Positions 40,201 through 58,982 of a stretch of DNA of 64,000 bases are shown here, piece by piece. Within the stretch, counting starts at the first letter, position 1. The number at the start of each line of letters is the position of its first letter. Position numbers and translations under genes: made by a program. Source of the stretch: Anodontia alba (lineage: Eukaryota; Mollusca; Bivalvia; Lucinida; Lucinidae); assembly GCA_964016985.1 (NCBI GenBank), contig OZ024823.1:134622112-134686111 (forward strand). The letters are read 5' to 3'. A model generated the notes under the pieces. The model ran no database searches, was not told where the DNA came from, and was given only the letters and a program-made list of their open reading frames with translations.

Positions 40201-42332
40201 GCTCAAATAGTATAGATAGTGGGTACCTTGTGGACTCAACTCCTAAAGTTGTAGACGGTTTTTTTTGAAACTGTGCAGGTGTATTTTGCCATGGTCTGAA
40301 GATATGCATGTGCTTTTGTGATATTCCTGAATTTATTCTTATCACTTTTTCCGCATTTTGAATTAAGTCATTTTTTACAGCTTATAAATATAATGTGCAT
40401 AGATAATTGGTACCTTGTGGAGGCAACTCCTCTTAAAGTTGTGGACTTTAAAAGCACATCCAGTTGTCTATTTGAGTTGTAGTTCATGTACTTACAAAAG
40501 GCGGGGGACATAAATTCCTTTTGGAATTTGCTTATTTCCCCTGAAAACAGACCTTGACATTTCATTCAGAATGCCTTTTTAGGAGACAGTGTGAGTTGAA
40601 TGCCAACATCCATTTGAATATAGTTCAAACGAACTGGGCCTATTTTCAGGCCCTGAGGTTATAAAACTTTTGTCATGCTCAACTCAGCTGAGCATGAAAT
40701 TTGTCCTGCTAATAAATCTAAAATTACTAACAACTGCAAATTCTTTCTTGCTAAACATTGCTGAGCATGAAAATTTATCTGCTAGTAAATATGAAAATGC
40801 CAACTATTGTTGGCATTTTCATATTTATTAGCAGAGAAAATTTTCAAACTTGACTTAGAAATCATCAAGACAAACATTTTGAGCAAGATCCATGATAATT
40901 GCTTCAAAAATGTGAATGCTAGAGTGTTAACAAGGTTTTCCGTTGATTTGGCCCCGGTGACCTGGTGTTTGACCCCATGTGACCCAGTTTTGAACTTGAC
41001 CTAGAAATCATCAAGACAAACACATTGAGCAAGATTCATGATGATTGATTCAAAAATGTGACCCCTGGAGTGTTAACAAGGTCTTCTTTTGATTTGGCCC
41101 GGTGATCTAGTTTTTGAACCGAAGTGAGCCAGTTTCGAACTTGACCTAGAAATCATCAAGACAAACATTTTAAGCAAGATTCATGATGATTGCTTCAAAA
41201 ATGTTACCGCTAGAGTGTTAACAATGTTTTCCTCTGATTTGGCCTGGAGACCTAGTTTTTGACCTCAAGTGACCCAGTTTCAAACAACCTAGAAATCATC
41301 AAAACAAAACATTTTGAGCAAGATTCATGATGATTGCTTTAAAAATGTGACCTCTAGGGTGTTAACAATATTTTCCTTTGGTTTGACCTGGTGACCTAGT
41401 TTTTGACCCCAAGTGACCCATTTCAAACTTGACCTAGATTTCATAGGGGCAAACATTCTGAGCAAGTTTCATCAAGATCAGGTAAAAACTGTGGCCTCTA
41501 GTGTGTTAACAAACTAATTGTTGATGATGGACGACAAGCGACAGAGGGCGATCATAATAATGGTTGGAAAAGCAAAGTGCTTTATCTTGAGTGATGAACT
41601 AGAAGTATACATTTCACTTACTGTGCTTTCCATATCCTTTGAAAAGACATTTTTTATTTGGCGTTTTATTCTAGATGGAAAAATTGATTTGTGATTGACA
41701 ATTACTCATCAAAAACCATATGTTGTTCCTGTTCAGTGCTTTATTTTCAAATATTTACTGAAAAATTAATTTTATTGCCAAAAATGGGTCTGGACATGCA
41801 TTTTCTGTAGTAAACTAGATTTTTTTTCTTTTTTTCTTTTTTTTGTTATCAAAAATTTTTTTTTGCTTTTCCTCATTAATTTTAAGTCATTGATGTTCCA
41901 CAACAATATTGTGAAAATTTCAGAAATTTTAAACAAATGAAACTTGTTGAAAACCTGCATTCAAACTACCTACCCTATTGATTTTTGCATAATTTGTGGT
42001 CATTTTTACTGTGGGAAAGATGGATTTTTTCAATTTTTTAAAAAAATTACTGAATAGAAGAAAACTTTTTGTGCATAGGTAGTTGCAACAAAAAGGTTTC
42101 GCATTGAATCATGACAAAAATTTGCCAATTTACTTTTTCTGAATAATGTGCCATGCAAAAAAACTACTTTCTAAAAGCTGTCGAAAGCATAGTAGGTTAA
42201 CATTATGCAATGTCAGGTGAAACACATTATTTCTACTATTTTTTTTTTCCCAGGTCTGAGTCTGCAAAGAAGAAAAGTGCTGAGAAGAAAAGAGAGCATA
42301 CAGATATAGGGGAATATCAGATCAGAATATAA
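6926..42332 (+). CDS. VASH: Vasohibin (tubulin tyrosine carboxypeptidase), ten coding exons
   Basis: Transglutaminase-like cysteine protease that, with its small partner SVBP, removes the C-terminal Tyr of alpha-tubulin (family knowledge). Joined exons: 6926-7246, 11745-11836, 15337-15393, 17523-17597, 19837-20008, 21179-21224, 24830-24909, 27117-27200, 39863-40002, 42254-42332; every junction is GT-AG and phases agree, giving 381 residues (human VASH1 365). Residues 60-92 contain the conserved VNKNGFPVDD...HVAKIHPDG block. The triad is visible: Cys174 in LPIKCLEAVILG, His209 in HRHVVLG, Ser226 in GRYGALGMSRREDLMYKP, with the 35- and 17-residue spacings of human C169/H204/S221. The C terminus ends GEYQIRI, like vertebrate GYQIRV. 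The start is the first ATG after an in-frame stop at 6905. Residues 19-59 are Lys/Arg/Glu-rich and variable. Introns total about 34 kb and are full of transposable elements. Confidence 0.96.
8259..8294. repeat. Poly-T tract
   Basis: Homopolymer T run within the interior of the long-TIR element, preceded by a TTTA microsatellite at about 8143-8164. Confidence 0.85.
8424..8500. repeat. Two-copy direct repeat, ~40 bp unit
   Basis: GGTGTTTAACGACTTGTGAA followed by GCTTTAACGACTT occurs twice, about 42 bp apart, inside the long-TIR element. The motif TTAACGACTT recurs within each copy. Function unknown. Confidence 0.75.
9117..9573 (+). pseudogene. Ulp1-like (C48) protease C terminus fused to a PHD finger, transposon-borne
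   Basis: The frame 9117-9542 contains VQQQPNSYDCGLFAIANVVE, the Gln...Asp-Cys-Gly active-site block of Ulp1/SENP-type cysteine peptidases. Just upstream, in a different frame, LYDSAIEWG resembles the strand preceding it. The C-terminal part is a PHD finger: WCYCRMPE, MIYCDNRKCKTWFH, then EW, a TGA stop at 9540-9542, and CPSC in the same frame. One zinc ligand is lost (Arg in RKRVGL where Cys is usual). The frame break upstream, the internal stop and the lost ligand mark it as a decaying remnant. Its place inside long inverted repeats indicates a transposon gene, not a host exon of vasohibin. Confidence 0.75.
10556..11744. other. Rest of vasohibin intron 1, no gene seen
   Basis: No recognisable exon or element. 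Contains a short run of ACAT repeats (about 10823-10840), an A-rich tract at about 11495-11531 and a G-rich patch near 11070-11112. The last bases before 11745 form a pyrimidine-rich acceptor ending TTTCAG. Confidence 0.6.
11745..11836 (+). CDS. VASH: Vasohibin coding exon 2
   Basis: Acceptor TTTCAG precedes ATGCCTTACCC; the frame reads MPYPTPPVNFSPVLSVLERL and then EKIQYYMNAL, matching the vertebrate segment before YNHTGTQFFEI. The donor is CA/GTATCC, so the exon ends after two bases of the Gln138 codon. A partial second copy lies at 15652-15841. Confidence 0.93.
11767..11957 (+). repeat. Parent copy of a 190-bp duplicated segment (exon 2 plus intron)
   Basis: Exon 2 from GTCAACTTCTCACCAG through about 120 bp of the following intron is repeated at 15652-15841 with roughly 85-90% identity by eye. 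The acceptor and first 22 bases of the exon are not in the copy. Confidence 0.9.
12290..12500. repeat. GGCAATATTGCC-type palindromic cluster
   Basis: Repeated short palindromes such as GGCAATATTGC, TGGCAATAACTTATTGCCA and TGGCAATATTTTATTGCCA. The same motif family forms a second cluster at 14155-14400 in the same intron. Confidence 0.75.
12690..13720. repeat. Tandem array, ~160-bp units, with GCCCCCGCC hairpin cap
   Basis: Starts with ATGCCCCCGCCATTTTTAAT and GGGGGGTGGGGGCATA, an imperfect hairpin, and then holds about five units that share TTTATACACAGGCATATAAT, AAAATGTAGGTCAAGTT and GTTATGGCCCTTTTTC-like words. Ends near ATGACCCCTGGGCAGGGGCA. The same cap-and-array design recurs at 25790, 49300, 54990 and 57130 with different unit sequence. 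No coding role seen. Confidence 0.8.
14155..14400. repeat. Second GGCAATATTGCC palindromic cluster
   Basis: Contains GGCAGTATTGCAGCAATATT, CTGGCAATATTGCGGG, CAGTATTGCCACAATATTGC and GGTAATATTGCTGCAATATT. Many of these words are 10-12 bp self-complementary. Confidence 0.8.
14611..15080. repeat. GATCAG hairpin, TACTC-type MITE and a ~190-bp composite hairpin repeat
   Basis: 14611-14675 is a GATCAG hairpin. 14700-14890 is an inverted-repeat element running from GAGGAATTGTTAGGAGGAGT to the inverted CTCCTTCTTAACCG. 14880-15080 joins ATGCTGAATAAATTAAGATG, CCAATCAGATTACTTGAT and a hairpin with arms CAGTTGGCTTCTTC/GAAGCCAACTG, and ends near GTCAACAAG. The last type recurs at 24120, 28509, 34300, 40015, 47517 and 62350. 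Confidence 0.7.
15200..15312. repeat. Short tandem repeat, ~33-bp unit, three copies
   Basis: Three consecutive copies of a unit containing CAGATTATTAGAGAATTTGA or close variants, just upstream of exon 3. Confidence 0.75.
15337..15393 (+). CDS. VASH: Vasohibin coding exon 3
   Basis: Acceptor GTCCAG, then A completing Gln138, followed by YNHTGTQFFEIRKNRPLS; donor GG/GTAAGA. At 57 nt it is the second-shortest coding exon after exon 6. YNHTGTQFFEI is a near-invariant vasohibin block. Confidence 0.95.
15510..15655. repeat. 31-bp tandem repeat with TACTAAC words
   Basis: About four and a half copies of a unit reading ACAGTATACCAATGATATTG plus ACAGTATACTA. Every unit contains TACTAACAG. The last unit abuts the duplicated exon 2 segment and supplies an AG at 15643-15644 directly before it. 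Confidence 0.9.
15645..15722 (+). CDS. Possible in-frame cassette exon (duplicate of vasohibin exon 2)
   Basis: 15652-15722 copies most of exon 2 and retains its donor CA/GTATCC. If the AG at 15643-15644 is used as acceptor the exon is 78 nt, enters and leaves in phase 2 and so could sit between exons 3 and 4 without shifting the frame. It would read IPINFSPVLSVLERLKK and IHHYMNAL. A TACTAAC word 34 bp upstream could act as branch point, but there is no pyrimidine tract. The frame contains no stop. Use as an exon is speculative; a silent duplication is the simpler reading. Confidence 0.3.
15652..15841 (+). repeat. VASH: Second copy of the exon 2 segment in intron 3
   Basis: Near-collinear with 11767-11957, including ~120 bp of intron sequence (for example GACTGCATTTGTCCACATTC in both), so it arose by DNA duplication and not by retrotransposition of spliced RNA. 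It begins exactly at the end of the 31-bp tandem repeat. Confidence 0.92.
15870..16975. repeat. Tandem array, ~140-bp units (about six)
   Basis: Units share TTTTCATTAAACTTTGGTCA, GAGATGATGTGCAGAA, CTCAAGGTCAAGG and CTCCATATCTCCTTTACCCC. A flank of CTGTCTGTC/CCATCTGTCTG words precedes the array. Non-coding. Confidence 0.85.
17251..17318. repeat. GATCAG hairpin repeat
   Basis: AAACAGTGCAGATCCAGATC ... GATCGGGATCAATGCTGTTT with inner arms GTTGGCTTCTTC/GAAGCAAAC. A member of the family described at 43913-43982. Confidence 0.8.
17523..17597 (+). CDS. VASH: Vasohibin coding exon 4, with catalytic Cys
   Basis: A poly-T acceptor ending TTTCAG is followed by LMECAKDMIRESLPIKCLEA and VILG; Cys174 is the catalytic nucleophile by alignment with vertebrate LPIKCLEAVILG. 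Donor AT/GTATCC. The upstream TA microsatellite and T run form an unusually simple acceptor tract. Confidence 0.95.
17635..17865. mobile_element. Full-length palindromic MITE, ~230 bp
   Basis: Ends AGACTGGCTCTGGTCC... and ...GGACTGGAGCCAGTCT are inverted repeats, and the centre TATTATGAAGCACTGGTCAC / GATCAGTGCTTCATAATA folds back too. Same family as 19142-19373. It begins only 38 bp after the exon 4 donor. Confidence 0.8.
17968..18230. mobile_element. Pogo/Tigger-like MITE, left part
   Basis: CAGTAAACCCTCGTTACAAC preceded by TA is the left end seen complete at 35157-35500 (CAGTGAACCCTCATTACAAC). An internal hairpin lies at GAATTGCCTCACTGAGGTGATTC. The right terminal repeat is missing. Confidence 0.7.
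18310..18418. repeat. Large palindrome, two 47-bp arms with 15-bp loop
   Basis: Left arm 18310-18356 starts ACCCAGCTAGCATTCTACGT; right arm 18372-18418 ends ACGTAGAATGCTGACTGGGT and pairs with it along the whole length, with only a few mismatches. The arms contain GGGCCGTCATCGGCCC, itself nearly self-complementary and far more GC-rich than its surroundings. Confidence 0.9.
18420..18850. other. Intron 4 stretch without recognised features
   Basis: AT-rich sequence, no exon signal. A short repeat scrap GGTTCATGGAGTTCAGTCAA near 18690 resembles one near 21375, on the opposite strand. Confidence 0.5.
19142..19373. mobile_element. Near-perfect palindromic MITE, ~232 bp
   Basis: Arms start TAGACTGGCTCCAATCTCTA and end ACTGGAGCCAGTCTA; the centre CTGGTCACTAGAG / CTCTAGTGACCAG is a perfect inverted pair. 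Almost the whole element folds into one hairpin. Sister copy at 17635-17865. Confidence 0.88.
19378..19805. repeat. Composite element with CCCTAAATATTGGG outer ends and GATCAG hairpin core
   Basis: TATTTACCCTAAATATTGGG at about 19380 is inverted as CCCAATATTTAGGGTATTTA at about 19777. The core 19637-19704 is a hairpin: CAGTGTAGACCCTGATCAGA, inner arms GACTGCTCCT/AGGAGCAGTC, then TGATCTGGGTCTGCACT. Similar outer-plus-core units occur at 31955-32157, 43797-44018 and 59380-59555. Confidence 0.75.
19837..20008 (+). CDS. VASH: Vasohibin coding exon 5, with catalytic His and Ser
   Basis: Acceptor ATACAG, then YLTNGMMGVERFAISFKTAF and NGNTHRHVVLGIYHSGRYGA followed by LGMSRREDLMYKP. His209 and Ser226 complete the non-canonical Cys-His-Ser centre. 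Phase 0 donor AAG/GTCAGT. With 172 nt this is the largest internal exon. Confidence 0.96.
20660..20885. mobile_element. Inverted-repeat MITE with GTACTCATTAGAAGTGCCTC core
   Basis: Outer arms AGAGGAATTGTTAAGGAGGA and TCTCCTTAACAATTCCTCT; centre GTACTCATTAGAAGTGCCTC / GAGGCACTTCTAATGAGTAC, perfectly inverted. This is the clearest copy of a family with many partial copies (14700, 21590, 24360, 28740, 34550, 42690, 43000, 45690, 47260, 54790, 56890, 60000, 62640). Confidence 0.85.
21179..21224 (+). CDS. VASH: Vasohibin coding exon 6
   Basis: A strong poly-T acceptor precedes SLSEVVFDFEKSYKK, matching vertebrate TLSELVLDFEAAYGRC; donor T/GTAAGT. At 46 nt it is the smallest exon and could be missed by automated annotation. 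Confidence 0.93.
21813..24034. mobile_element. Solo LTR of an LTR retrotransposon, 2.2 kb
   Basis: Begins TGTCACGTGATC and ends GGGACGTGACA, i.e. TG...CA with inverted TGTCACGT/ACGTGACA tips, flanked by the 5-bp direct repeat CACTC (21808-21812 and 24035-24039). No gag, protease, integrase or reverse transcriptase coding was seen inside, and no internal copy of the ends, so a solo LTR left by recombination is the simplest reading; a non-coding LTR-type derivative is the alternative. Four copies of CTGATCAGGGTCTA or close variants lie at 23034, 23071, 23151 and 23189. It interrupts an older hairpin repeat in intron 6. Confidence 0.78.
24120..24320. repeat. Composite hairpin repeat (GTTGGCTTC type)
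   Basis: GCAAACAGTGTAGATCCAGA ... TCTAGATCTGCACTGTTTGC with inner arms CAGTTGGCTTC/GAAGCCAACTG; followed by AAGTAATCTGATTGGCTG and CATCTTAATTTATTCAGC, the inverted form of the arrangement at 14880 and 28509. Confidence 0.85.
24830..24909 (+). CDS. VASH: Vasohibin coding exon 7
   Basis: Acceptor GTTTCAG, AC completing Tyr255, then WHEVKKIKIGLPVPHDPHSY and EFIQWK, matching vertebrate WHVLKKVKLGQ.VSHDPHS. Donor AAG/GTAACT, phase 0. Confidence 0.95.
24930..25145. repeat. GAAAAG.GGTCTACT hairpin element
   Basis: CTTCTGAAAAGAGGTCTACT and CCCTTTCAGAAGGGAAG are in inverted arrangement. A second copy is at 43565-43800 (GCTTCTGAAAAGGGGTCTAC ... ACCCCTTTCAGAAGGGAGG). Confidence 0.7.
25790..26392. repeat. 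Tandem array (~130-145 bp units) capped by CCTGCCAC...GTGGCGGGG hairpin
   Basis: Four units share AAATTTGCCCATTAGCAAT, ACCAAGTTTGGTGAAAATCC and TTTACTCAAGTTATTGTCC. The right end is a hairpin ATACCCTGCCAC/GTGGCGGGGTAT near 26360-26388, preceded by GGACGGACAG-type words. Confidence 0.85.
26726..26792. repeat. GATCAG-type hairpin repeat (GATGAG variant)
   Basis: GCAAACAGTGTAAACCCTGA ... CGTCAGGCTTTGTTTGCC with inner arms GAGATGCCA/TGGCGTCTC. Confidence 0.7.
27117..27200 (+). CDS. VASH: Vasohibin coding exon 8
   Basis: TTTTACAG acceptor, then SLVLTRNKMTQQEVSREVDS and HSKLIRSK, corresponding to vertebrate HSVLDVERLGRDDFRKELERHARDMRLK. Donor AAG/GTGGGT, phase 0. This closes the catalytic domain; what follows is the variable C-terminal tail. 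Confidence 0.9.
27700..27767. repeat. Variant hairpin with CAGCCTGTGCA arms
   Basis: AATGAAGGCTCAGATCAGCC, TGTGCATTTGCACA loop, then GGCTGATCAGGGCCTTCATT. Same GATCAG logic as the main family but different arms; relatives near 29573-29635 and 46150-46228, all close to CAGCAAAG/CAATGAA words. Confidence 0.8.
28090..28111. repeat. Poly-A tract
   Basis: Homopolymer A run in intron 8. Comparable A runs lie at 17356-17377, 30930-30951 and about 33920-33960. Confidence 0.9.
28509..28720. repeat. Composite hairpin repeat (GTTGGCTTC type)
   Basis: CATGCTGAATAAATAAAGAT, CCACTCAGATTACTTGATC, then hairpin ACAAACAGTGCAGATCCAGA ... ACTGTTTGC with inner arms CAGTTGGCTTCTT/AAGAAGCCAACTG, ending CAGCAAGAGAAGGGTTAA. 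Confidence 0.85.
29923..30117. mobile_element. CAGGCCCTGAGGTTATAAAA element nested in another repeat
   Basis: Runs from CAGGCCCTGAGGTTATAAAA to the imperfect inverted end TTTTGTAACCTTGGAGCCTG. It interrupts a GTACTCATTAGAAGTG-type MITE whose two halves continue at 29900-29922 and 30118-30200. A second copy lies at 40645-40850. Confidence 0.65.
31062..31335. mobile_element. MITE with CCATATTTGA.C / GTAA...GGT ends
   Basis: ACCATATTTGATCCATTTAC and CCCCTATAAGCGCACAG at the left, with AAGCGCACAGTGCGGTAATT near the right in inverted order. A second copy lies at about 44877-45222 (CATATTTGACCTAATTACTG ... TTATAAGGTCAAACATGG). Confidence 0.6.
31490..31796 (-). mobile_element. tRNA-derived SINE, full length
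   Basis: Read on the minus strand it begins GCCGGCCTTGGTGGCTCAGT, with an A-box-like TGGCTCAGTTGG and a B-box GGTTCAACCCC, and ends with GGCCGTAAAACCTC followed by an A-rich CAAACAAA tail. Nearly identical copies lie at 47955-48262 and 55048-55355, and a 5'-truncated one at 61321-61467. The target duplication is not clear for this copy. Confidence 0.88.
31955..32157. repeat. Composite CCCTAAATATTGGG element with short GATCAG core
   Basis: TATTTACCCTAAATATTGGG at the left and CCCAATATTCAGGGTTATTA at the right. The core reads GCAAACAGTGTAGACCCTGA ... TGGGTCTACACTGTTTGC, with a shorter loop than other copies. Confidence 0.75.
32458..33737 (-). mobile_element. Mariner element, inactive
   Basis: Terminal inverted repeats CGAGGGTCATCTGATAAATA (left) and its near complement TATTTATCAGCTGACCCTCG (right), flanked by TA (32456-32457, 33738-33739). 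The transposase runs on the minus strand from 33574 to 32531, broken by one in-frame TGA at about 33287-33289. Element length 1280 bp is typical. It sits in vasohibin intron 8. Confidence 0.92.
32531..33574 (-). pseudogene. Mariner transposase with mutated catalytic residues
   Basis: The N-terminal part (MVESVFVLMCDKILPYFKIE ...) carries a helix-turn-helix region with STVCRWVQKF; after one nonsense codon the frame continues EEIAHKTGISHSSIHTIL and then the catalytic domain. The first acidic site reads ATEETW (Glu where DETW is usual), the second block LHDKATPH (Lys for Asn), and the third SPDLSSPGYDLF, where Gly replaces the Asp expected at the DD34D spacing. Three changes at the active site plus a stop make it dead. 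It has no relation to vasohibin function. Confidence 0.9.
34300..34510. repeat. Composite hairpin repeat (GTTGACTTC type)
   Basis: CATGCTGAATAAATTAAGAT ... GCAAACAGTGCAGATCCAGA, inner arms CAGTTGACTTCTTC/GAAGGCAACTG, ...GATCTGGATCTACACTGTTT. Same family as 14880 and 28509. Confidence 0.85.
34851..35154. mobile_element. Pogo/Tigger-like MITE
   Basis: CAGTCAACTCTCATTATCTT at the left and a right end matching the copy at window position 1-141 (CTTCGAGATAATGCGTCATC). Contains the inverted pair AAATATTGTGGAAAAGGAG / TCCTCTTTTCCACAATATTT. It abuts the next MITE with only TA between them. Confidence 0.8.
35157..35500. mobile_element. Second pogo/Tigger-like MITE, adjacent
   Basis: Starts CAGTGAACCCTCATTACAAC and ends AAAGAGGGTTGACTG, flanked by TA (35155-35156 and 35501-35502). 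An internal hairpin AGAAATGCCTCACTGAGGCAGTTCT lies near 35310. A partial relative is at 17968. Confidence 0.82.
35727..35965. repeat. Hairpin element with AACCCTTAAAACGCC ends
   Basis: AACCCTTAAAACGCCAAG at the left; the right end GTTTAAAGGTTAA is a weak inverse. The core 35831-35898 is one of the best GATCAG hairpins: ACAAACAGTGTGGACCCAGA, inner arms GACTGCTCCT/AGGAGCAGTC, TGATCTGGGTCCACACTGTT. Confidence 0.75.
36120..37900. other. Repeat-poor part of vasohibin intron 8
   Basis: About 1.8 kb in which I recognise no repeat family and no coding exon. It contrasts with the repeat-filled flanks. The reading frame 36794-37039 has no recognisable domain and no convincing splice context. Confidence 0.5.
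38395..39045. repeat. Minisatellite, 71-bp unit, about nine copies
   Basis: Successive TTAGAGGGACCACTTCAGGA words start at 38471, 38542, 38613 and 38684, a strict 71-bp period; each unit also contains CACCAGTGACTCCATCAGTC and ATGTTGGTTTCAAAATACTC. Central units are nearly identical, outer units degenerate, with a gradual indel drift after 38820. Confidence 0.93.
39540..39780. repeat. Cluster of GATCAGCCTG hairpin variants
   Basis: GATCAGCCTGCACATTCCCA, TGATCAGCCTGTACATCTGC, ACAGTCTGATCAGTGTCACT and AATCAGCCTGAGTGAGTGC, then GCACAGGCTGATCTGTG. Tandem relatives of the 27700-27767 hairpin. Confidence 0.65.
39863..40002 (+). CDS. VASH: Vasohibin coding exon 9
   Basis: Acceptor TTTGTAG, then a Ser/Pro-rich tail: AKSWSLPQPSSPRKSLSFVD and LESMKHSRIHSLPGHTSLSQ, ending AMKVYQG across the junction. 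The phase-0 acceptor matches exon 8 and the phase-2 donor GG/GTAAGC matches exon 10. Vertebrate vasohibins have a comparable Ser/Arg/Pro-rich C-terminal region, so identity rests on phase, frame and position. RKSLSF and PSSPRK look like phosphorylation-prone sites (inference). Confidence 0.82.
40015..40150. repeat. Composite hairpin repeat, internally deleted
   Basis: AACCCTTGCCTTGCGGAATA ... CCAATGAGATTACTTGATC followed directly by GATCTACACTGTTTGCTAAG; the left half of the hairpin is missing. Starts 12 bp after the exon 9 donor. Confidence 0.75.
40645..40850. mobile_element. Second copy of the CAGGCCCTGAGGTTATAAAA element
   Basis: Collinear with 29923-30117 up to ATATGAAAATGCCAAC, then runs into an inverted copy TGGCATTTTCATATTTATTA instead of the usual right end. 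Confidence 0.7.
40840..41575. repeat. Tandem array, ~145-bp units (five)
   Basis: Units share ACTTGACCTAGAAATCATCA, GAGCAAGATTCATGATGATT, GAGTGTTAACAAGGTTTTCC and CCTAGTTTTTGACC. Ends near GACGACAAGCGACAGAGGGC. Confidence 0.85.
41576..42253. other. End of intron 9, no gene seen
   Basis: AT-rich with a T-rich patch at 41820-41870; ends in the T8-CCCAG acceptor of exon 10. Confidence 0.6.
42254..42332 (+). CDS. VASH: Vasohibin coding exon 10 and stop
   Basis: T-rich acceptor ending CCCAG, then SESAKKKSAEKKREHTDIGE and YQIRI, stop TAA at 42330-42332. The Lys-rich run and final YQIR(I/V) are shared with vertebrate vasohibins, which fixes the C terminus. Confidence 0.93.
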
Positions 42333-42480
42333 ACCAAAATATCCAAGTGTTCAACTTCATCATAGCTTCTGATGAGGCACATTTTCCATTACCAAAACAC
42401 GCCTATTCAAATATATTGAAAATTTTACAACCAGAAAAGGAAATTTTCAGATGAAAAATTCTGAAATTTTTCATATTCCT

Positions 42481-42571
42481 GCTCAAAATATAGATTGTGA
42501 GAACTGGTTAGAACTGCCTTGGTGAGGCAGTTCTAACGAGTACCCACAATCTATGATTTTTAGCAAAATGA
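42481..42571. repeat. Palindrome with AGAACTGCCT/AGGCAGTTCT centre
   Basis: TGCTCAAAATATAGATTGTG ... TTAGAACTGCCT TGGTG AGGCAGTTCTAACG ... CACAATCTATGATTTTTAGC. Lies in the likely vasohibin 3' UTR or just beyond, ~150 bp after the stop. Confidence 0.8.
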
Positions 42572-43564
42572 GAAAAAAAAATGTATACCCCTGTAAACCC
42601 CAGTTTTACTATATAAAAGTAGGGTTTAAGGGGGTCAGAATTATATAAGCGTGTTTTTGTGATATAAACAAAAGATATATTGATATTTTTCTTATTTGTC
42701 CATGAAAACATATAATGTTAGTATTCATAAGAAGCACCTCACCAAGACTTTTCTGATGGCTTACATAACATATGTTTTTTATGGACAAATAATAAAAATA
42801 TTACCTGGATACTCCTGTCTGTAGCTATGGTTTATGTAATATGATTATCATGTCATGTTGCACGAATAAGAGAAAAGAGCATACATAGGGTTGTGGATTT
42901 ATCAAATTTTATTACTTGTCCACGGACAAGTAAATGATCAAAATCCACTTGTTCAGCCAAGATTTTCCTGCCCAAAAATTGACATTTTTCTTTTTTTCTC
43001 CAAGAAACATATTGTGGGTACTCATTAAAAGCACCTCTGTGAGTCACTTCTAATGATTATCCACAACATATGTTTTCTTTGAGAAATAAGAAAAAAAATT
43101 ATCCCATAATCTGGATACTCTTCTTAGCTAGAGCTATGAAGTCCTTTTCCCAGGACAAGTAAACTTGAAAGTCTTTACTTGTTCTCAGAGAAATAGGACA
43201 AGCTGGACAAGTCCCAGATCTGACTGGAGTTGTGTTGTAATAGTTTAGTTGGATTCATTTTGGTGCATACAGAATCTCAAGATAGTCACTTGTATAAATC
43301 TTCATGTTTTTATCAATCAATCAAGCAGATTTTTAACGTAGCCGGGCAACAAAGTCAAATAGGGCTACATCTCTTCATGTTTTATTTGTTCCCTAAATCC
43401 TAAAAGGGCCATTCAAAATTGTAGCAGACAATATTCTAAAATATTTTGTTTTTATTTTTCAGAGAAAATAAGGCCTGATGATTCATGTGCCTTGTCAAGC
43501 CTTTTTTTCTCTGAAAATATTAAAAAAAAAATATCTGAGAATGTCATCTGCTGGTGTTGTGACT

Positions 43565-43800
43565 GGTGCTTGAAGGAGACATAATACATTTTGTAGATTT
43601 TCAGCCATTTTCTACATGGGAGCTAACTTTTGTTAGCTTTCCTTCATAACAAGACCCGCTTCTGAAAAGGGGTCTACTCTAAAAGGAAAGAATTTGCTCC
43701 CAAGCCTTTAGAGAAGACCCCTTTCAGAAGGGAGGCAAAAACAGTTTTACAGAGTTGCCTTCCCTGAAAGTATCAAGTCCTCTTAAGGAGTTTATTGTAT
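43565..43800. repeat. Second GAAAAGGGGTCTACT hairpin element
   Basis: Matches 24930-25145; the pair GCTTCTGAAAAGGGGTC/GACCCCTTTCAGAAGG is better preserved here. Confidence 0.7.
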
Positions 43801-44018
43801 TTACTCTAAATATTGGAACACTTAACTAATTATCATACTTGTCCTATAATCTGTAAAAGTCTGTTCCACTACCAGTCCTGTTGATGAGTTTAAAATATTG
43901 CTGGACAAGTGGCAAACAGTGTAGACCCTGATCAGATGCCACATTCTGTGGCATCTGATCTGGGTCTACACTTTTTGCTAAGGCCTATCTCTTCCAACAC
44001 TTAGGGTTATTATGGTAC
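43797..44018. repeat. Composite element with best-preserved GATCAG hairpin core
   Basis: Core 43913-43982: GGCAAACAGTGTAGACCCTG, ATCAGATGCCACATTC, TGTGGCATCTGATCTGGGTC, TACACTTTTTGC. Outer ends TTTACTCTAAATATTGG and CCAACACTTAGGGTTATTAT are inverted. I count more than twenty such hairpins in the window: 14611, 14972, 17251, 18862, 19637, 24158, 26726, 28614, 30670, 32060, 34401, 35831, 43913, 46686, 47556, 54503, 57946, 59388, 63708 plus variants at 27700, 29573, 39540, 46150 and 48590. Confidence 0.85.
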
Positions 44019-44338
44019 CTTCATCCTTCTGAAGATAAATCTTGTGGTTGGCAAATCAGTGATTCTTGTCCTATTTTTCTATAAGTCCATGTAATTATAT
44101 GATATATCTTGACTCGCAATGGCTCAAATAGATGCTCTACATATTTGATACAAAAATACACTGTGGTCTATCTACAATTTCTGTTTTGTCGCTGAAAACA
44201 GTATTACAGTAAACAAATGGAGTCCTGGACTTATGGGATTTTGCAAGTTTTCTATTGCCTAAATCTTACATTTGAATACAAATTATCATTTGTGCAATAA
44301 TTTCATCTTGAGTAATAAGTGTTTATGTTTTTATCAGC

Positions 44339-44441
44339 TAATTATGGAGAATTCATCTTTCCGGTTTCGTCAGGAAGCAAGAACATTTCATGACCAAACA
44401 GGAATTAGCAATTTCTTGTCTAACTATGATTATGTGATACT
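44339..44441 (+). CDS. Candidate exon of an unidentified + strand gene (first of two)
   Basis: Acceptor TTTTTATCAG, 103-nt open frame reading IMENSSFRFRQEARTFHDQT and GISNFLSNYDYVI, donor CT/GTAAGT. Its phase-2 end joins the next candidate exon after a 149-bp intron. The composition is protein-like and no repeat family covers it. I do not recognise the protein. Its entry phase does not match the phase-2 donor of vasohibin exon 9, so it is unlikely to be an alternative vasohibin end. Confidence 0.5.
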
Positions 44442-44590
44442 GTAAGTAGAATGCCCTTTTCATAATATGATCTGAAAATTTGACAATTAAATAACTATTT
44501 TATAATCAAAAACAATCAGAACTAAGTGTTTCAGTTTCCTTATCTTCCTGTCATTATGAAATGTTTTTTTTACCTCAACACCTGTTTCAG

Positions 44591-44677
44591 GAATGAAACA
44601 GAAGTAGCCAGTGTTGATAGACCACAGTTAAATTACAAACATTGCTTCACTCTTGTTGGAGCATTAGTCTATTTTAG
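44591..44677 (+). CDS. Candidate exon of an unidentified + strand gene (second of two)
   Basis: Acceptor CCTGTTTCAG; the frame continues NETEVASVDRPQLNYKHCFT and LVGALVYF, 87 nt, donor AG/GTCAGT (phase 2). The final FTLVGALVYF is hydrophobic and could begin a membrane segment or core strand. I could not find the next exon with confidence. The alternative is a chance open frame with good splice words. Confidence 0.5.
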
Positions 44678-44876
44678 GTCAGTAGTTAGTCATATTATAT
44701 TTTAACCCTTGGTATACAAAATGCAAAATTTAGCAGACAAGAAATTAGTGGTATTTTCTTCTATTTTTTGTTTTTTATGAAAAAAAAAACAACAAAAAAA
44801 CAACAACTACAAAAAACAACAACAACAAAAAACTCAATGGGAGAAAAATTATATAAATGAATAAATATCATATTTG

Positions 44877-45222
44877 ACCTAATTACTGCACATACCCCTA
44901 TAAGTACACAATCAAGCAATTTGGTAGTCTTCAGATTACAGCCAGTGTACTTCTTGTCTACTTCTTTATGAAAGCATAAGTTGTGGGTACCCATTTGAAT
45001 TGCATTGACAAAGCCATTCAAATGAGTACCCACTACATATGCTTTTATAAAGAAAATCAGCAAAAAAAGCAACACAAAAATATTGCATATAAGCATCATT
45101 TGATAAGCCCTTCGCTGATCTTTTAAAGAGAAAGTATAGGTAGTTACATATTTTATGACAAGATTTCCCAGTATTTTTGAAGAACCTAAGCGCACAGTAT
45201 GTTTATAAGGTCAAACATGGTA
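44877..45222. mobile_element. Second copy of the CATATTTGACCTA MITE
   Basis: CATATTTGACCTAATTACTG and CCCCTATAAGTACACA at left, GCGCACAGTATGTTTATAAG and GGTCAAACATGG at right. The centre GTGGGTACCCATTTGAATTG / CATTCAAATGAGTACCCAC is an inverted pair. Confidence 0.75.
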
Positions 45223-45796
45223 ATCATGTTGGAGTTCTCCTTAGGCCAGTACACATGAACTGCTGAGTACTATAAGGTGACGGTTCACATGAAATGGCAA
45301 ACTTTTCTTTGAGGTGGGTGGGGTGATATTTTAGAAATGTTTAAGTGCCTATGATATTGCATCAAATAAGCAAAGTATTTTGATATTCTTAATACAGAGT
45401 CTTTAAATATCAGTGTTGGCTAAATGAATTTGTTGAGAGGAATATAGAAAAATGGAAATATTGAGGGCATATTTCATTGTAGCTTTTGAAGTGTTTTTAA
45501 CATATCACACTTTTTCTATTTTTAAATATATCACATTTTTATTTATTTTCAAATATATCACATTTTTATATCTTTATTTTGTTATTGTTATTTCTATAAA
45601 ACCGATACCAAGGAAATCTTTTTCTTTGTGTCAGGTCTAAAAACAGCTCCAGATAAAGCATTTATATGGCCAAGAATTATTGATATTTTTCTTATTTGTT
45701 CACAGGAACATACATTGTGCGTACTCATTAAAGAGCCTCACCAAGGCACAACATATATTTTCATGGAAAAATAAGAAAAGTATTTATCTGAATACT

Positions 45797-45969
45797 TTTT
45801 TTTTTTTTTTGATTTGGGTTTTACGGCCCTTTCAAGAATATTTCACTTATATCGAGCCGATCATTCATCGAAGGTGGGCGAAAACCGGAGTACCCGGAGA
45901 AAAACCACCTGACCATCCGTAAGCAGAACTTGGCTTTCCCACATATGACCTGAGCTGGGCTCGAACCAC
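45797..45969 (-). mobile_element. Second SINE family, 5'-truncated, with 15-bp target duplication
   Basis: Flanked by ATTTATCTGAATACT at 45782-45796 and 45970-45984. On the minus strand it begins at a B-box GTGGTTCGAGCCC, has a body containing TTTTTCTCCGGGTACTCCGG, and ends GGCCGTAAAACCC plus a ~16-base A tail. The 3' word GGCCGTAAAACC is shared with the other SINE family in the window although the bodies differ. Confidence 0.88.
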
Positions 45970-52851: not shown

Positions 52852-52854
52852 TAA

Positions 52855-53620: not shown

Positions 53621-54480
53621 TGACTACCTGATGTTTTACAAATCTCTGAGTGAAATGAAAACAGTTGTGGAGACCCCATCATAGAAGGGGTAGATACAGG
53701 AAGATTTCTGAGGGGATTTGATTTGAATGAAATACAGTACTTATGGACAGGCCCCAGCAAAATGTACGCCCAGATTAGATGTGGCAGAATACAGCATCCA
53801 ATAGGGTCAACACCGTTTACCACTCACTCAGCAATTTTACACATATTCACAGGCAGTAAAATGGACTTGCTGAATAACAGTATATTAAGATAGTGGGTAA
53901 AGGGTGTGAATATTTATGCTAATACTGTATCCCATATTTACAAGTATGTTATCCGAAATTTATCAAATTTATTTAAAATTTCCCATGAAAATGAAATTCT
54001 GAGTCAAAGCAGGGTTCAACTTAACCTGCAAATCCCGCTCTGAATCAGCCCCTGCATATTGCTCCTTTATAAGTAGGATCTTGGTCTACAAAATTGTTCT
54101 GAATACTTACTGTAAATATAGTATATCTTTATGGAAATATACTTTCTCGATTTGAAATCTTGTAGGAAATTCTAAAACTCTCTGGGCAAATAGAGCACAC
54201 ATCAAACATTTTCTTACTTTTCCAAGAAAATGAGACTTGACTCTACAAAGTTTAATGGCAGTACAAACTAAATCTAAATACACAACTTCTCAGAAGCTCT
54301 GACAATATAGCAAAAACTTTTAAAAGGAAAGGCAAGGTCAACAAAGAATATAAATGAAATAAAAAAAAAAAATGGATCAAAGTTGGATGACAAATAAGAA
54401 AGCCATTAAGGCTTAAAGATATCAAAAATTTGCTTTCATTGGTGTCACCTCTTTAAATATTTAACCCATTTAAGCCTAGC
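53620..54480. other. Intergenic stretch, no gene seen
   Basis: No conserved frame or clear repeat. A 10-A run lies at about 54361-54371. Confidence 0.5.
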
Positions 54481-54902
54481 ATCCCATAAAAGGGACATTT
54501 TCAAACAGTGAAGACCAAGATCAGATGCTGTGGAATGAGACATCTGATCAGGGTCCACACAGTTTGCATTAAGATCTGAAATTTCTACAAAACATGATTA
54601 TAATAAAAATTATCCAGACACTCCTTTTATAGGAAATGGACCTGTCCAAAGAGTTAAGGTAGAAAAGTCCACTCAGCATAATTGGGTTAATTAAACTTTT
54701 ATGATGTCATTAAACCTTAATTAAATATGCAAAACCTAAATAAATAATATTTACAATATTTTACCTCTGTAGTTACGCAAACACTTTTTTCTCAGGACAT
54801 ATCATAGCTCCAGATAAGGCATGTTTTTCAACTAAAAAAGTAATATTTTTCTTATTTCTCCAAGAAAACATGTATTGTGTGCAATGAAGCACAATAGTTA
54901 CG

Positions 54903-54965
54903 AGTTGAATTCCGTCTCCAGCTGGATTTGAACCAGAGACCTCGTGATCCAAAGACGCTTCAGTA
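54903..54965 (-). repeat. tRNA-like fragment (possible SINE scrap)
   Basis: On the minus strand CGAGGTCTCTGGTTCAAATC then CAGCTGGAGACGG resembles the T-arm and 3' half of a tRNA with a B-box GGTTCAAATCC. There is no matching 5' half, so it is not a tRNA gene. Confidence 0.4.
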
Positions 54966-55047
54966 AATAAACCATAAAACCATAATACACTACCATTATC
55001 CTGTTGCTGCAGGTAACTCTGTCAAAAATTGATGAAATTTGCCCATT

Positions 55048-55355
55048 TGTGTTTTTGTTGAGGTTTTATGACCCAGTCAACCCAATGGGGTCATGTCAAA
55101 AGCGGTCAGTTTATCTAACCACACGTTTACTGGGCAGGCTTAGTCCTCTAAGCGGTTAACCAGTATTGTGCACATTCTTTCACCAGAAACTGACAACTGC
55201 CCTTCTTGAATCAGCGGAAGGGAGAGAATGACCGTAGAAAATATTTCACGATCAATCTTCACGAAAGAATGTTGCCGACCTCAGCGGGGGTTGAACCCGC
55301 GACCTCCTGGTCTCCAGTCGGACGGCGCATCCAACTGAGCCACCAAGGCGGCTTA
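55048..55355 (-). mobile_element. tRNA-derived SINE inserted in the array
   Basis: 308 bp flanked by the 13-bp duplication AAATTTGCCCATT (55035-55047 and 55356-55368). Same head, B-box GGTTCAACCCC and tail as 47955-48262; one base is lost in the head (GCCGCCTTGG instead of GCCGGCCTTGG). Confidence 0.92.
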
Positions 55356-55436
55356 AAATTTGCCCATTAGCAATTCCAAACCAGATCTCCACAATATCAA
55401 TGCAAATATCAAGTTTAGTGAAATCCATTGAGATTG

Positions 55437-55757
55437 CTGATTGATTGTGTTGGGGTGTGATGACACGACAACCCTTGTGGGTCATTTTTGTGTCGTCTCC
55501 CAGAGAAAGGGAGAAAAGAGACAGAAGAGATAGTGAAAAGAGATAGAAGAGATAGTGGAGGAGATAAAAGAGAGGGACAGGGAAGAGAGAGGAACAGTAA
55601 TGAAAGTTAAGTAACAGAAGAAATAAAAACATTCCCCCTCTACCCTTACCAGATACAAGGATACATGTAGCAGGCTTTGCCCAATTGTAAGCCAATATCA
55701 GTTGGACGCCCCGGGGACATAAGATACACAATTTCGCCAAACCCGACCCCACTGTCT
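55437..55757. mobile_element. Unclassified ~320-bp insertion
   Basis: The array sequence CCATTGAGATT is cut before GCTGATTGATTGTGTTGGGG and resumes as GAGATTTACTCAAGTTATTG after ACCCCACTGTCTAAT. The insert carries a purine-rich tract (GAGAAAAGAGACAGAAGAGA and similar, 55510-55600) and an inverted pair GACACGAC/GTGTCGTC. GAGATT may be the target duplication. I do not recognise the family. Confidence 0.45.
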
Positions 55758-56628
55758 AATGAGATTTACTCAAGTTATTGTCCTGAAACGAAAGTATGGA
55801 TGTGTCCCAGGCAGAAAACTCTGTCAAAAATTGACGAAATATGCCCATTAGCAATTCCAACCCAGCTATCCATAATACCAATGCACATACCAAGTTTGGT
55901 GAAAATCCATTGATATTTACTCATGTTATCTTCTGGAAAGAAAAATACGGACATGTTGCTGGCAGACAATTGTCAAAGAGTCACAAAATGTAGCCATTAG
56001 CAATCCCAAACCAGATCGACAAATTTCAATGCATATACTAAGTTTGGTGAAAATCCATTCAAATTTACCCAAGTTATCTCCCAGAAACCCAAATACATAT
56101 GTGTCATGGGCAGATAACTATGTCAAAAATTTGGCCATTAGCAATCCCAAACCAGATCTCCACATTATCAATGCACATACCACGTTTGGTGAAAATTCAC
56201 TGACATTTACTCAAGTTACTGTCCGGAAACAAAAATATGGATAGATATATGACAGATGGATGGACACATGGACAGACATACAGACAGCCAAAGTGAAACC
56301 ATAATACCTCGCCATTATCATGTGGCAGTGTATATAAAGAATGGACTATCTTAAATGCTAGGAAAAGTATGGTTTACTGAAAACATCCTCGAATCTTTGT
56401 GGTAAACAGGTCCCCCAATTTATTAGTGTTGTCCAGTTGATTGATTATATTCGATTATCAGTCACTTTTGTAAATTTGGTGACTAATAATCGGAAAGAAT
56501 TTTCATAGTTGACTAATAGGAAAATTCTATTTTTAAGAGCATAATTTTTTTGCGTTGTAAAAATATGAAATACCAACCTGTCTGTTTGGGTCATTTTTGA
56601 TAAGGCTCTATTCAACCGAAAAATAATG

Positions 56629-56872
56629 GGCCCAGTTGTTCAAAGCATCGTTAGCTTAACAAGCTCATTAGTTGTCAAAATGTTAACTGTTCTAGTAAGT
56701 ACAATATGTAATTCACGGGTATTTTTGCTGAAAAACTGTGAGTAGCTTTAATGCAAAACCTACTCACATTTTTTTCTGCAAAAATATTAGCGTATATGCC
56801 ATATTTAATGATCAAAGTTTTAACGATACGTTAACTAACAACATCGTTAGTTTTGAACAACTGGACCCTGAT
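56629..56872. mobile_element. CAGTTGTTCAAA palindromic MITE
   Basis: GGGCCCAGTTGTTCAAAGCA at left, TTTTGAACAACTGGACCC at right; inner pair GTGAGTAG.TTT/AAACCTACTCAC. Nearly the same length as 50869-51107. Confidence 0.9.
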
Positions 56873-57129
56873 ATTTTTCTTATTTCTACATGAAAACTTA
56901 CATTGTGGGTACCCATTAGAAGTGCCTCTTCATAGCATTTGTAATGAGTATCCACACCATAGGTTTTAATGGCGATATAAAAAAAATATTATGTAGATAT
57001 CCCATCTTATCTGGAGCTATGAATAAGTACCTAAGTGGGCTAAAATAAGAATCAATACACTTTCTACAATTAGTTGATGATCAGTCGGTTTTGCAAAACT
57101 GACGACTGACTATGAAATTCTGGCTGATT

Positions 57130-57880
57130 CCCAAAACTACCATTTATTGAATAATAGAACATGACACTATAATACCCTGCCATTATCATGTTGCGACAGA
57201 CAACTCTGTCAAAAATTGACGAAATTTGCCAATCAGCAATCCCAAAGCAGATCTCTACAATATCAATGCACATGTCAAATTTGGTGAAAATCCATTGAGA
57301 TTTACTCAAGTTATTGTCCTGCAATTAAAATAGGGATGTATTGTGGGCAGATAACTGTCAAAAATGGACGAAATTCGGCCATTAGCAATCCCAATGCAGA
57401 CCACCACAATATCAATGCAAAAACCAAGTCTGGTGAAAATCCATTGATATTTACTAAAGTTATTGTCCAAAAATGAAATTATGGATGTGTTGCTGGCAGA
57501 TAACTCTGTCAAAAATTGATGAAATTTGCCCATGAGCAATCCCAAATCAGATCTCCACAATATCAATGCATACACCAAGTTTGGTGAAAATCTATTGATA
57601 TTTACTAAAGTTATCATCCTGAAATGAAAAATGCTGACCTATTGGGGCAGATAACTCTGTCGAATATTAACGAAATTTGCCCATTAACAATCCCAAACCA
57701 GATCTCCACAATATCAATGTACACAGCAGGTTTGGTGAAAATCCATTGACATTTACTCGTTATCATTCGGAAACAAAAATACAGAGGGACGGACATACGA
57801 CAAACGGATGGATGGGCACACGGACAGCCAACGTGATACCATAATACCCCGCTACTATCGTGTTGCGGGGTATAAAAAGT
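57130..57880. repeat. Tandem array capped by CCCCGC hairpins
   Basis: Left ATACCCTGCCATTATCATGT, right ACCCCGCTACTATCGTGTTG then CGGGGTAT; five units with the words listed for 54990-56340. It ends ~145 bp downstream of the ANGEL stop, so it may lie within the ANGEL 3' UTR region. Confidence 0.85.
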
Positions 57881-57945
57881 TTGAGAGAGGAGACCCTTGA
57901 TCTGATTCTATATTTACCCTAAGTATTCAGACAGATGGGTCTTAA

Positions 57946-58014
57946 CAAACAGTGTAGACTAAGATCAGACACTGCAGAACACAGGATCTGATCAGGTTCT
58001 ACACTGTTTACCAC
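57946..58014. repeat. GATCAG hairpin repeat next to the ANGEL stop codon
   Basis: ACAAACAGTGTAGACTAAGA, TCAGACACTGCAG, GGATCTGATCAGGTTC, TACACTGTTTACC. It ends 9 bp beyond the ANGEL stop codon and would therefore be transcribed in its 3' UTR. Confidence 0.8.
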
Positions 58015-58023
58015 TCATCTGAT

Positions 58024-58982
58024 TTATTTGAGTAAAAAGCTTGTGAGAAGTGATACATGATCTGATGCCAGATGTTCATTTGGAAGACCTCCCATCTGTT
58101 GTAGTTCATGATCAGCCAACAAACCATATCTGCCCAACAGATGCAATGGTCCTTCTTCAACATTCCTTGTTTCTACTTCCCCTTTCCAAAATCTTACTTC
58201 TTTATACCTCACTCCATAAAATATATAATCTACAGTGCAAGAAGCCTTATTATGATAGGTAGTTATTTCTCTGTGCCTGTGCCTAAGTCGGCTTATCCTG
58301 TGTTTATAGGCTGACAGTAAATGAAAATCATGACTTAAAGTGCCAGTTCCTTGCATACCTGTCATCTCTATATCTGAATCAGGTGTGTCCTCTTTCAAAG
58401 TCCGTTTTCTTTTGGAAAGATTATGACGAGATTTTAAAACATCTAAATACTGACACGTATCACTTATGCCTACTTCTGTAGGGATAAAACGTTTGCCTAG
58501 AGATATATTATTGCCCCTAAAAAGTCCCTCTTGCTGTCCAGAGACAACTCGACAAAGGAGGCCATCATACAAGAGTCTACCCATTGTTAGTAACTTGTAG
58601 AGGGCACTATGTGGCTCAGAATTAAAATCTCCACACATTATTAAAGCATGGTAATTGTCTGGCTGAGAATCACTTACATATCCACATTTGTCTAACTCAG
58701 CCAGCAGCACCATTATTTGAGCTAGTTTAACATCACCACGGCGTGGATTGAACAGTAAATGAGTATTTGCAACACACACTCTTCTGTCTGAAGGCACATG
58801 TTCTGACAAGGGTTTTAATTTCACAATCAGGGCAACATTGTCTCTGTCCAACACCCCACCTCCACCTGGATGATAATATTCTATTGGAATGGACTTCTCA
58901 ATGTAAAATTTTGATTTTTTGACAAAAGTAGCACACCCATCCTGTTTGTTGCCAGATCTTTTAACAAATGCACTGTCATAGC
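58024..58982 (-). CDS. ANGEL: ANGEL last coding exon (319 codons with stop)
   Basis: Minus-strand acceptor TTATCTTTTTTCAG just above 58982; the exon begins with GC completing a Gly codon, then YDSAFVKRSGNKQDGCATFV. It holds most of the catalytic domain in a single exon, with a family-variable insert (KSRHNLSKRKRTLKEDTPDS and following) between SDTCQYLD and the VDYIFY block. The stop TAA at 58026-58024 is embedded in AAATAAATC, which contains an AATAAA hexamer; whether it serves polyadenylation is unknown. Confidence 0.95.

What the first reader, a model, noticed from the sequence alone, without database searches (positions are those of the whole stretch)
42332..58026. Vasohibin and ANGEL are convergent neighbours, as in vertebrates
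The + strand VASH gene ends at 42332 and the - strand ANGEL gene ends at 58024, tail to tail. From general knowledge, human VASH1-ANGEL1 (14q24.3) and VASH2-ANGEL2 (1q32.3) are also adjacent pairs. If this window is a mollusc, the linkage is older than the vertebrate duplications and has been kept over more than 500 million years despite heavy transposon load here. That invites the question of a shared regulatory element or 3'-end interaction.
Basis: partly seen in the sequence, partly recalled or inferred. Interest (0 to 1): 0.85.

Follow-up and report, generated by a model that had tools for sequence, protein, structure and literature searches.

The report
Anciently linked VASH and ANGEL genes
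In this clam-like genome the vasohibin and Angel genes lie tail to tail as nearest recognisable neighbours, and the same two genes are also linked in many other molluscs, in acorn worms and in vertebrates, so the pairing is very old; nothing found here shows that the two genes need each other.

Summary
A 10-exon vasohibin gene (381 codons, + strand) ends at 42332. A 4-exon ANGEL gene (703 codons, - strand) ends at 58024 and starts at 70302, beyond the window. VASH and the main ANGEL exon have no other match in the 1.86-Gb assembly. Trees place both genes among molluscs; VASH lies outside the vertebrate VASH1/VASH2 clade.

Protein-database rows allowed a linkage test. In 12 of 17 invertebrate species (10 of 13 molluscs) VASH and ANGEL lie on a record of identical length. 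These include a 286-kb Saccoglossus scaffold and consecutive locus tags in Patella caerulea. VASH2 and ANGEL2 share a record in 5 of 5 vertebrates; cross-species control 0 of 1495. The pair very likely goes back to the bilaterian ancestor.

It is not universal: 5 of 17 do not match. The 15.7-kb gap is at least half repeats, and early poly(A) signals on both sides give no support for overlapping 3' ends. Most likely this is inherited adjacency kept mainly by slow rearrangement; selection for shared regulation is possible but unshown. Ten paper searches listed no study of the pair.

The parts
6926..7246 (+). VASH coding exon 1 (MSQFEPL... to ...TDLPQ)
   Evidence: gene model; Pfam Vasohibin 47.9 bits over 7112-7249
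11745..11836 (+). VASH coding exon 2
   Evidence: best of all AG..GT candidates against the human VASH1 segment (score 54; best candidate elsewhere 23); aligned to P0001
15337..15393 (+). VASH coding exon 3 (YNHTGTQFFEIRKNRPLSG)
17523..17597 (+). VASH coding exon 4, with the cysteine of the SLPIKCLEAVILG block
19837..20008 (+). VASH coding exon 5, with the His and Ser of RHVVLG...GMSRRED
   Evidence: (85.7 bits)
21179..21224 (+). VASH coding exon 6 (SLSEVVFDFEKSYKK)
24830..24909 (+). VASH coding exon 7 (WHEVKKIKIGLPVPHDPHSYEFIQWK)
27117..27200 (+). VASH coding exon 8; a second donor at 27248 also keeps the frame (397 codons)
   Evidence: the 27200 end fits P0001 and P0008 better, the 27248 end fits P0002 and P0003 slightly better, P0005 equally
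39863..40002 (+). VASH coding exon 9 (serine/proline-rich tail)
   Evidence: frame and splice phases fit; aligned without gap to P0001
42254..42332 (+). VASH coding exon 10, ending GEYQIRI and stop
42333..58023 (.). Space between the two stop codons, 15.7 kb; 55% has a second copy within the 304 kb held
58024..58982 (-). ANGEL last coding exon (most of the endonuclease/exonuclease/phosphatase domain)
62500..62569 (-). ANGEL coding exon 3 (VICLQEVQKSHYEDYFQPELRKL)
   Evidence: exons 2 (65659-65891) and 1 (69453-70302) lie beyond the window in L005

Best explanation
The two genes are the single bivalve orthologues of VASH (tubulin tyrosine carboxypeptidase) and ANGEL (RNA-processing phosphatase of the endonuclease/exonuclease/phosphatase superfamily). 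[quoted passage not shown] The block was copied in the vertebrate genome duplications (VASH1-ANGEL1, VASH2-ANGEL2) and has stayed together here, while other genes of the same ancestral linkage group lie megabases away. Shown: orthology, single-locus status, tail-to-tail arrangement here, and linkage in molluscs, hemichordates and vertebrates. Inferred: ancestral origin by parsimony. Inferred, less sure: retention is mainly inertia (few breakpoints fell between two adjacent genes), perhaps with weak constraint, rather than a dedicated functional link.
For: Gene models and PDB matches (12, 13). Trees of 39 of the 120 listed VASH and 34 of the 172 listed ANGEL proteins plus the window's: VASH is sister (100/98) to five heterodont bivalves, vertebrate VASH1+VASH2 one clade (100/99); ANGEL in the mollusc clade (99/90), next to Mercenaria/Mya/Dreissena with weak support (86/56). 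Linkage test: 12 of 17 invertebrate species have VASH and ANGEL on a record of identical length: Mercenaria, Mya, Dreissena, Solemya, Argopecten, Pinctada, Gigantopelta, Littorina, Babylonia, Patella, Saccoglossus, Ptychodera (tallied in 69). Tight cases: Saccoglossus, both on a 285,712-base scaffold; Patella caerulea SNE40_010959/010960; Solemya ScPMuIL_013722/013725. Vertebrate VASH2/ANGEL2 5 of 5. Controls: cross-species 0 of 1495; VASH1 against ANGEL2 0 of 4. Vertebrate neighbours in papers: ESRRB ANGEL1 VASH1 on human 14, FLVCR1, VASH2, ANGEL2, RPS6KC1 on dog 7, angel2, vash2, flvcr1 on salmon 15. Same linkage group, scrambled order: PROX 50 Mb away and presenilin 7.2 Mb away, both on C3, which is 7.7% of the assembly.
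Against: The pair is not shown linked in 5 of 17 invertebrates: Glandiceps and Branchiostoma lanceolatum (chromosome-size records of different length; for Branchiostoma perhaps two assemblies), Potamilus and Lottia (different contigs), Mytilus edulis (rows from contig- and chromosome-scale assemblies). In Pinctada the locus tags are far apart (FSP39_021676/015000). Among protostomes only molluscs could be tested. Equal record length shows one chromosome, not adjacency; adjacency outside this window rests on Patella, Solemya, Saccoglossus and the vertebrate passages, and tags are assumed to follow gene order. Orientation was seen only in this window. Inertia was not tested against a genome-wide distribution of pair retention.
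Confidence: 0.78

Rival explanations
1. The pair is kept by selection because regulatory elements of one gene lie in or beyond the other (genomic regulatory block with a bystander). Breaking the adjacency would harm expression, so inversions between them are removed.
For: Retention in 10 of 13 molluscs, 2 of 3 hemichordates and in vertebrates, although Simakov et al. 2020 (PMC7269912, passages) state that gene order within linkage groups is largely scrambled. Robert et al. (PMC8851819, passages) cite increasing evidence that some conserved pairs are such blocks. VASH spans 35 kb here, mostly intron, and could hold elements.
Against: Neither gene is a developmental regulator, the usual target of such blocks (established knowledge). 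The pair is split or not shown linked in 5 of 17 invertebrates. No conserved non-coding element could be sought, as no second animal genome was available as DNA.
Confidence: 0.17
2. The 3' ends interact: convergent transcripts overlap and regulate each other by antisense or transcription interference, which keeps them tail to tail.
For: Tail-to-tail order here. A human list of genes near one variant names an antisense RNA VASH1-AS1 beside ANGEL1 (PMC12174371, passage).
Against: The stops are 15.7 kb apart, 55% of the space is repeated within 304 kb, and the first AATAAA lies 459 bases after the VASH stop; on the ANGEL side one overlaps the stop codon and the next is 0.9 kb on. Overlap would need 3' UTRs of many kilobases. 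No transcript was seen.
Confidence: 0.04
3. The adjacency here arose anew, by chance or by misassembly, and only resembles the vertebrate arrangement.
For: Genome order is scrambled over such times, and linkage is not universal.
Against: Chance adjacency of two named genes is about 0.5-1 in 10,000. Linkage recurs in 12 of 17 invertebrates from other assemblies.
Confidence: 0.01

Closest known systems
Ancient conserved microsynteny / bilaterian-ancestor gene neighbourhoods (e.g. Robert et al. 2022, PMC8851819)
   Same: Unrelated genes kept close from the bilaterian ancestor; the passages seen report that lophotrochozoans kept 93% of the blocks new in that ancestor.
   Different: That study counts blocks of three or more genes; this is a pair, and VASH-ANGEL does not appear in the passages seen.
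PDI/RhoGDI gene pairs (Sci Rep 2017, PMC5722932)
   Same: An ancient neighbour pair whose paralogues in human each keep such a neighbour (abstract start).
   Different: The PDI/RhoGDI cluster is reported disrupted in molluscs and annelids (passage), while VASH-ANGEL is kept in molluscs; that paper's title reports a functional interaction, none is known to me for VASH-ANGEL.
Genomic regulatory blocks with bystander genes (e.g. wnt7-atxn10, a hypothesis discussed in PMC8851819)
   Same: Deep retention of a pair of unrelated genes.
   Different: No developmental regulator here, and conserved non-coding elements could not be sought.
Vertebrate VASH1-ANGEL1 and VASH2-ANGEL2 loci
   Same: Same two genes as neighbours.
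   Different: Single unduplicated copy here, with a 15.7-kb gap; FLVCR1, the vertebrate neighbour, was not noticed in the 47 kb left of VASH (only ORFs of 75 codons or more outside local repeats, by eye; shorter exons would be missed).

Membership tests
Vasohibin (VASH) family | Vasohibin domain homology | tested here: met
   Pfam PF14822 hits over cut-off on 4 exons; PDB VASH1 252 bits; tree
Vasohibin (VASH) family | Catalytic Cys, His, Ser (recalled as C169/H204/S221 of VASH1) | tested here: met
   Aligned conserved blocks SLPIKC, RHVVLG, GMSRRED; roles and residue numbers recalled
Vasohibin (VASH) family | Carboxypeptidase activity with partner SVBP | not tested
   SVBP was not searched; activity needs the bench
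ANGEL subfamily of the CCR4-type EEP proteins | Closer to ANGEL than to CCR4/CNOT6, PDE12 | tested here: met
   193 bits to ANGEL2 against 47, 45 and 39; most named rows among the 120 listed say Angel, two tick rows say 'ccr4 related'
ANGEL subfamily of the CCR4-type EEP proteins | Catalytic motifs of the EEP fold (MSYN, LQEV, GDFNS, SDH; motifs recalled) | tested here: met
   All present in the model; core letters invariant in the seven Angels
Ancient conserved gene pair (bilaterian microsynteny) | Adjacent in this genome | tested here: met
   no other gene recognised between them, small unknown exons not excluded
Ancient conserved gene pair (bilaterian microsynteny) | Linked in both protostomes and deuterostomes | tested here: met
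   10 of 13 molluscs, 2 of 3 hemichordates, 0 of 1 amphioxus on one record; 5 of 5 vertebrates for VASH2/ANGEL2
Ancient conserved gene pair (bilaterian microsynteny) | Direct adjacency and same orientation elsewhere | tested here: inconclusive
   Consecutive tags in Patella, three apart in Solemya, same 286-kb scaffold in Saccoglossus; orientation not visible; far-apart tags in Pinctada
Genomic regulatory block | Conserved non-coding elements and a regulated target gene | not testable with these tools
   No second animal genome held as DNA; only Rfam was run (0 hits at gathering threshold)

The most novel reading that the evidence does not exclude
VASH and ANGEL form a functionally constrained pair: shared cis-regulation, or a common need in one tissue or process (microtubule detyrosination and RNA end repair), has preserved their tail-to-tail adjacency since the bilaterian ancestor and in both vertebrate ohnologue pairs.
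Probability: 0.18. Interest if true: 0.72.

Novelty: new member of a known kind. Interest (0 to 1): 0.46.

Why it matters
It adds a well-documented pair to the set of gene neighbourhoods that predate the split of protostomes and deuterostomes and that passed through vertebrate genome duplication with partners intact. It gives a clean, single-copy system in which inertia and selection can be told apart by counting retention across chromosome-level genomes and by looking for shared regulation.

Tried and rejected
Rejected: that ANGEL might be a CCR4/PDE12 relative; that the tRNA-Ser hit at 48181 is a gene (it lies in a 305-base element with a 94% copy at 55050-55353, so read as a SINE); that the gap hides a known gene (7 of 8 ORFs scanned) or a known RNA. 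Sequence shared between the VASH side and the ANGEL side of the gap was looked at as a possible regulatory match; the strongest shared blocks lie in the SINE and the tandem-satellite blocks, and the many short weak ones are read as dispersed repeats.

Led nowhere: papers on VASH-ANGEL synteny. Of ten searches, named the genes, named vasohibin (20 of 2,385 papers listed), and searches were general. No listed title or abstract start concerns this pair in evolution, and one search found 0 papers with both 'angel homolog' and 'vasohibin'. Of ten papers only passages were seen. Orientation in other animals, other genomes' DNA and ANGEL1 sequences could not be reached. Left flank: only 40 kb, no gene recognised by eye apart from retroelement pieces.

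Full report
What is there. The window is G000:C3:134622112-134686111 of an assembly of 1.86 Gb; C3 is 143.4 Mb. On the + strand a vasohibin gene was rebuilt exon by exon: 6926-7246, 11745-11836, 15337-15393, 17523-17597, 19837-20008, 21179-21224, 24830-24909, 27117-27200, 39863-40002, 42254-42332. All nine introns are GT-AG, the phases fit, and the frame gives 381 residues ending GEYQIRI. The unnamed database protein P0001 (387 residues) aligns to this model through all ten exons with a single gap, near the start; a second donor at 27248 would give 397 residues and fits two other relatives slightly better. On the - strand ANGEL has four coding exons: 69453-70302, 65659-65891, 62500-62569 and 58024-58982; the first two lie beyond the window in locus L005. 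The frame gives 703 residues; the start codon is a prediction.

Identity. A composite of parts of VASH exons 1, 3, 4, 5 and 7 hits human VASH1 and VASH2 structures (252 bits for the best). The ANGEL last exon hits human ANGEL2 at 193 bits and its cousins CCR4, PDE12 and CNOT6L at 47, 45 and 39. Pfam Vasohibin rings only in this locus (4 exon hits), and the ANGEL exon has one match in the assembly. In a maximum-likelihood tree of the window protein and 39 of the 120 listed VASH proteins, the window gene and P0001 are sister (100/98) to Mya, Dreissena, Mactra, Mercenaria and Ruditapes; vertebrate VASH1 and VASH2 form one clade (100/99), so this gene is co-orthologous to both. In a tree of the window protein and 34 of the 172 listed ANGEL proteins it falls in the mollusc clade (99/90) next to Mercenaria, Mya and Dreissena (86/56). 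That tree does not follow the species tree throughout: Octopus groups with these bivalves (95/85) and Potamilus lies outside the other molluscs. No ANGEL1 was available. I infer a heterodont bivalve outside the sampled clams; its species was not identified.

The gap. Of the 8 stop-to-stop ORFs of 100 aa or more, seven (107-195 aa) were scanned; one carries a transposase-type HTH, the others match nothing in Pfam. Rfam finds nothing in the window at its gathering thresholds. By self-comparison within 304 kb, 55% of the gap has another copy, against 42% in the VASH intron span, 37% left of VASH and 32% in the ANGEL intron part of the window; these are lower bounds on repeats. A tRNA-Ser hit is read as a SINE. 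The first AATAAA after the VASH stop is at 42791; one overlaps the ANGEL stop and the next on that strand is at 57148. Overlap of mature 3' ends is therefore unlikely here, though no transcript was seen.

Linkage elsewhere. No other animal genome was available as DNA, but the protein search lists for each protein cluster the length of the longest contig that carries it. Where one species' VASH and ANGEL rows show the same length to the base, I take them to lie on the same record. I took every species named first in a row of both the VASH list (120 of 670 hits shown) and the ANGEL lists (120 of 1667 and 120 of 1229 shown). Of 17 invertebrate species with a length for both, 12 agree: Mercenaria mercenaria, Mya arenaria, Dreissena polymorpha, Solemya velum, Argopecten irradians, Pinctada imbricata, Gigantopelta aegis, Littorina saxatilis, Babylonia areolata (one of two ANGELs), Patella caerulea, Saccoglossus kowalevskii and Ptychodera flava. 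That is 10 of 13 molluscs, 2 of 3 hemichordates and 0 of 1 amphioxus. Five do not agree: Potamilus streckersoni and Lottia gigantea (different contigs), Mytilus edulis (rows from contig- and chromosome-scale assemblies), Branchiostoma lanceolatum (31.7 and 33.1 Mb records, possibly two assemblies) and Glandiceps talaboti (24.1 and 33.9 Mb), which looks like a real separation. Left out: Lytechinus pictus and a second Saccoglossus VASH row, which have no contig. Controls: 0 of 1495 cross-species comparisons agree (42 VASH and 36 ANGEL species; most tick and all scorpion ANGEL rows were not entered). In vertebrates VASH2 and ANGEL2 agree in 5 of 5, and VASH1 against ANGEL2 in 0 of 4. The naive binomial odds printed ignore shared ancestry and are not used.

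How tight. Same chromosome is expected if linkage groups are old and says little about adjacency. Three cases are tighter: both genes on a 285,712-base Saccoglossus scaffold; consecutive tags SNE40_010959 and SNE40_010960 in Patella caerulea; tags ScPMuIL_013722 and 013725 in Solemya (tags assumed to follow gene order). Against this, Pinctada tags are far apart (FSP39_015000 and 021676). In vertebrates, passages of papers list the genes together: ESRRB ANGEL1 VASH1 on human chromosome 14 (PMC3732286); NSL1, TATDN3, FLVCR1, VASH2, ANGEL2, RPS6KC1 on dog chromosome 7 (PMC8414704); angel2, vash2, flvcr1 within 250 kb on salmon chromosome 15 (PMC7896726); a salmon candidate list, order unclear, with VASH1, ANGEL1, ESRRB, PROX2, TGFB3 (PMC6786245). 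That the vertebrate pairs are convergent is recalled, not seen.

The wider block. Two other genes that in human lie on 14q and 1q with VASH and ANGEL (human places recalled) were sought genome-wide and answered: Prospero/PROX at C3:84.6 Mb and presenilin at C3:127.4 Mb. Both are on C3, which is 7.7% of the assembly, but 50 and 7.2 Mb away. Three further families were asked and not answered, and no control family was run. Upstream of ANGEL on the same strand lie EGF exons from 51 kb, G2F from 74 kb and NIDO at 89 kb past its start codon, read together as a nidogen; nidogens are likewise on human 1q and 14q (recalled), but this was found by looking nearby and is not an independent test. This fits an old linkage group whose internal order is scrambled, as Simakov et al. 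describe for amphioxus and scallop (PMC7269912, passages), with the VASH-ANGEL pair surviving.

Mechanism. I hold descent from an ancestral neighbour pair as very likely. Why it survived is open. Robert et al. (PMC8851819, passages) infer 256 blocks new in the bilaterian ancestor and report that lophotrochozoans kept 93% of them while vertebrates lost 84%; survival of one pair in bivalves is thus not by itself surprising, and its survival in both vertebrate copies is somewhat more so. The pair appears to break in some lineages, so it is not indispensable. I put inertia first, regulatory interleaving second, and 3'-end interaction a distant third.

Novelty. Ten paper searches listed no study of the VASH-ANGEL pair in evolution; the library holds open-licence papers only, so this is a weak negative. 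The kind of thing (ancient neighbour pair) is well known; this is a new, well-supported member.

Changes after re-reading the calls: which VASH exons the PDB composite held, the number of ORFs scanned, the alternative donor of exon 8, the tree sampling and its conflicts, the nidogen distances, and the wording on Angel names. None of them required a change of odds.

Noticed in passing
63857-63998 and L005:3-602, L005:1550-1672 (window numbering 64003-64602, 65550-65672): A 21-base minisatellite in ANGEL intron 2 runs into the end of exon 2, and its units repeat the exon 2 splice donor; 10 perfect copies of the 14-base donor word were counted on that strand, the real donor included. The array seems seeded by the splice site and offers many decoy donors.
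   Followed up: partly
60866-62131: Tc1/mariner-type transposase remains in ANGEL intron 3, split over two open frames: HTH_23 over its Pfam cut-off, DDE_3 just under it.
   Followed up: partly
32531-33301: A second Tc1/mariner-like transposase fragment in VASH intron 8, recognised by eye, not scanned.
   Followed up: no
9117-9542: ORF that by eye looks like an Ulp1-type protease followed by a PHD finger, in VASH intron 1; probably transposon-derived.
   Followed up: no
48181-48258: tRNA-Ser(gga)-like hit inside a probable SINE; a 94% copy lies at 55050-55353.
   Followed up: yes
49357-49896, 55837-56257, 57197-57757: Blocks of a tandem satellite with a unit of about 130-150 bases, the first inverted relative to the other two, between the two genes.
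   Followed up: partly
581-1488: 21-base minisatellite with a palindromic core TCCTACGTAGGA, about 37 copies in three stretches.
   Followed up: no
L010-L014 and L021-L024 (about 121-159 kb and 232-256 kb in window numbering): A nidogen-like gene (EGF, G2F, NIDO domains) and further EGF and VWA exons upstream of ANGEL, same strand (8 exons scanned).
   Followed up: partly
Babylonia areolata proteins P0157, P0167: Two ANGEL proteins in this caenogastropod, only one on the record that carries VASH; perhaps a duplicate that left the pair.
   Followed up: no
Glandiceps talaboti proteins P0050, P0161: VASH and ANGEL on two chromosome-size records, while Saccoglossus and Ptychodera keep them on one; a candidate recent split.
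   Followed up: partly
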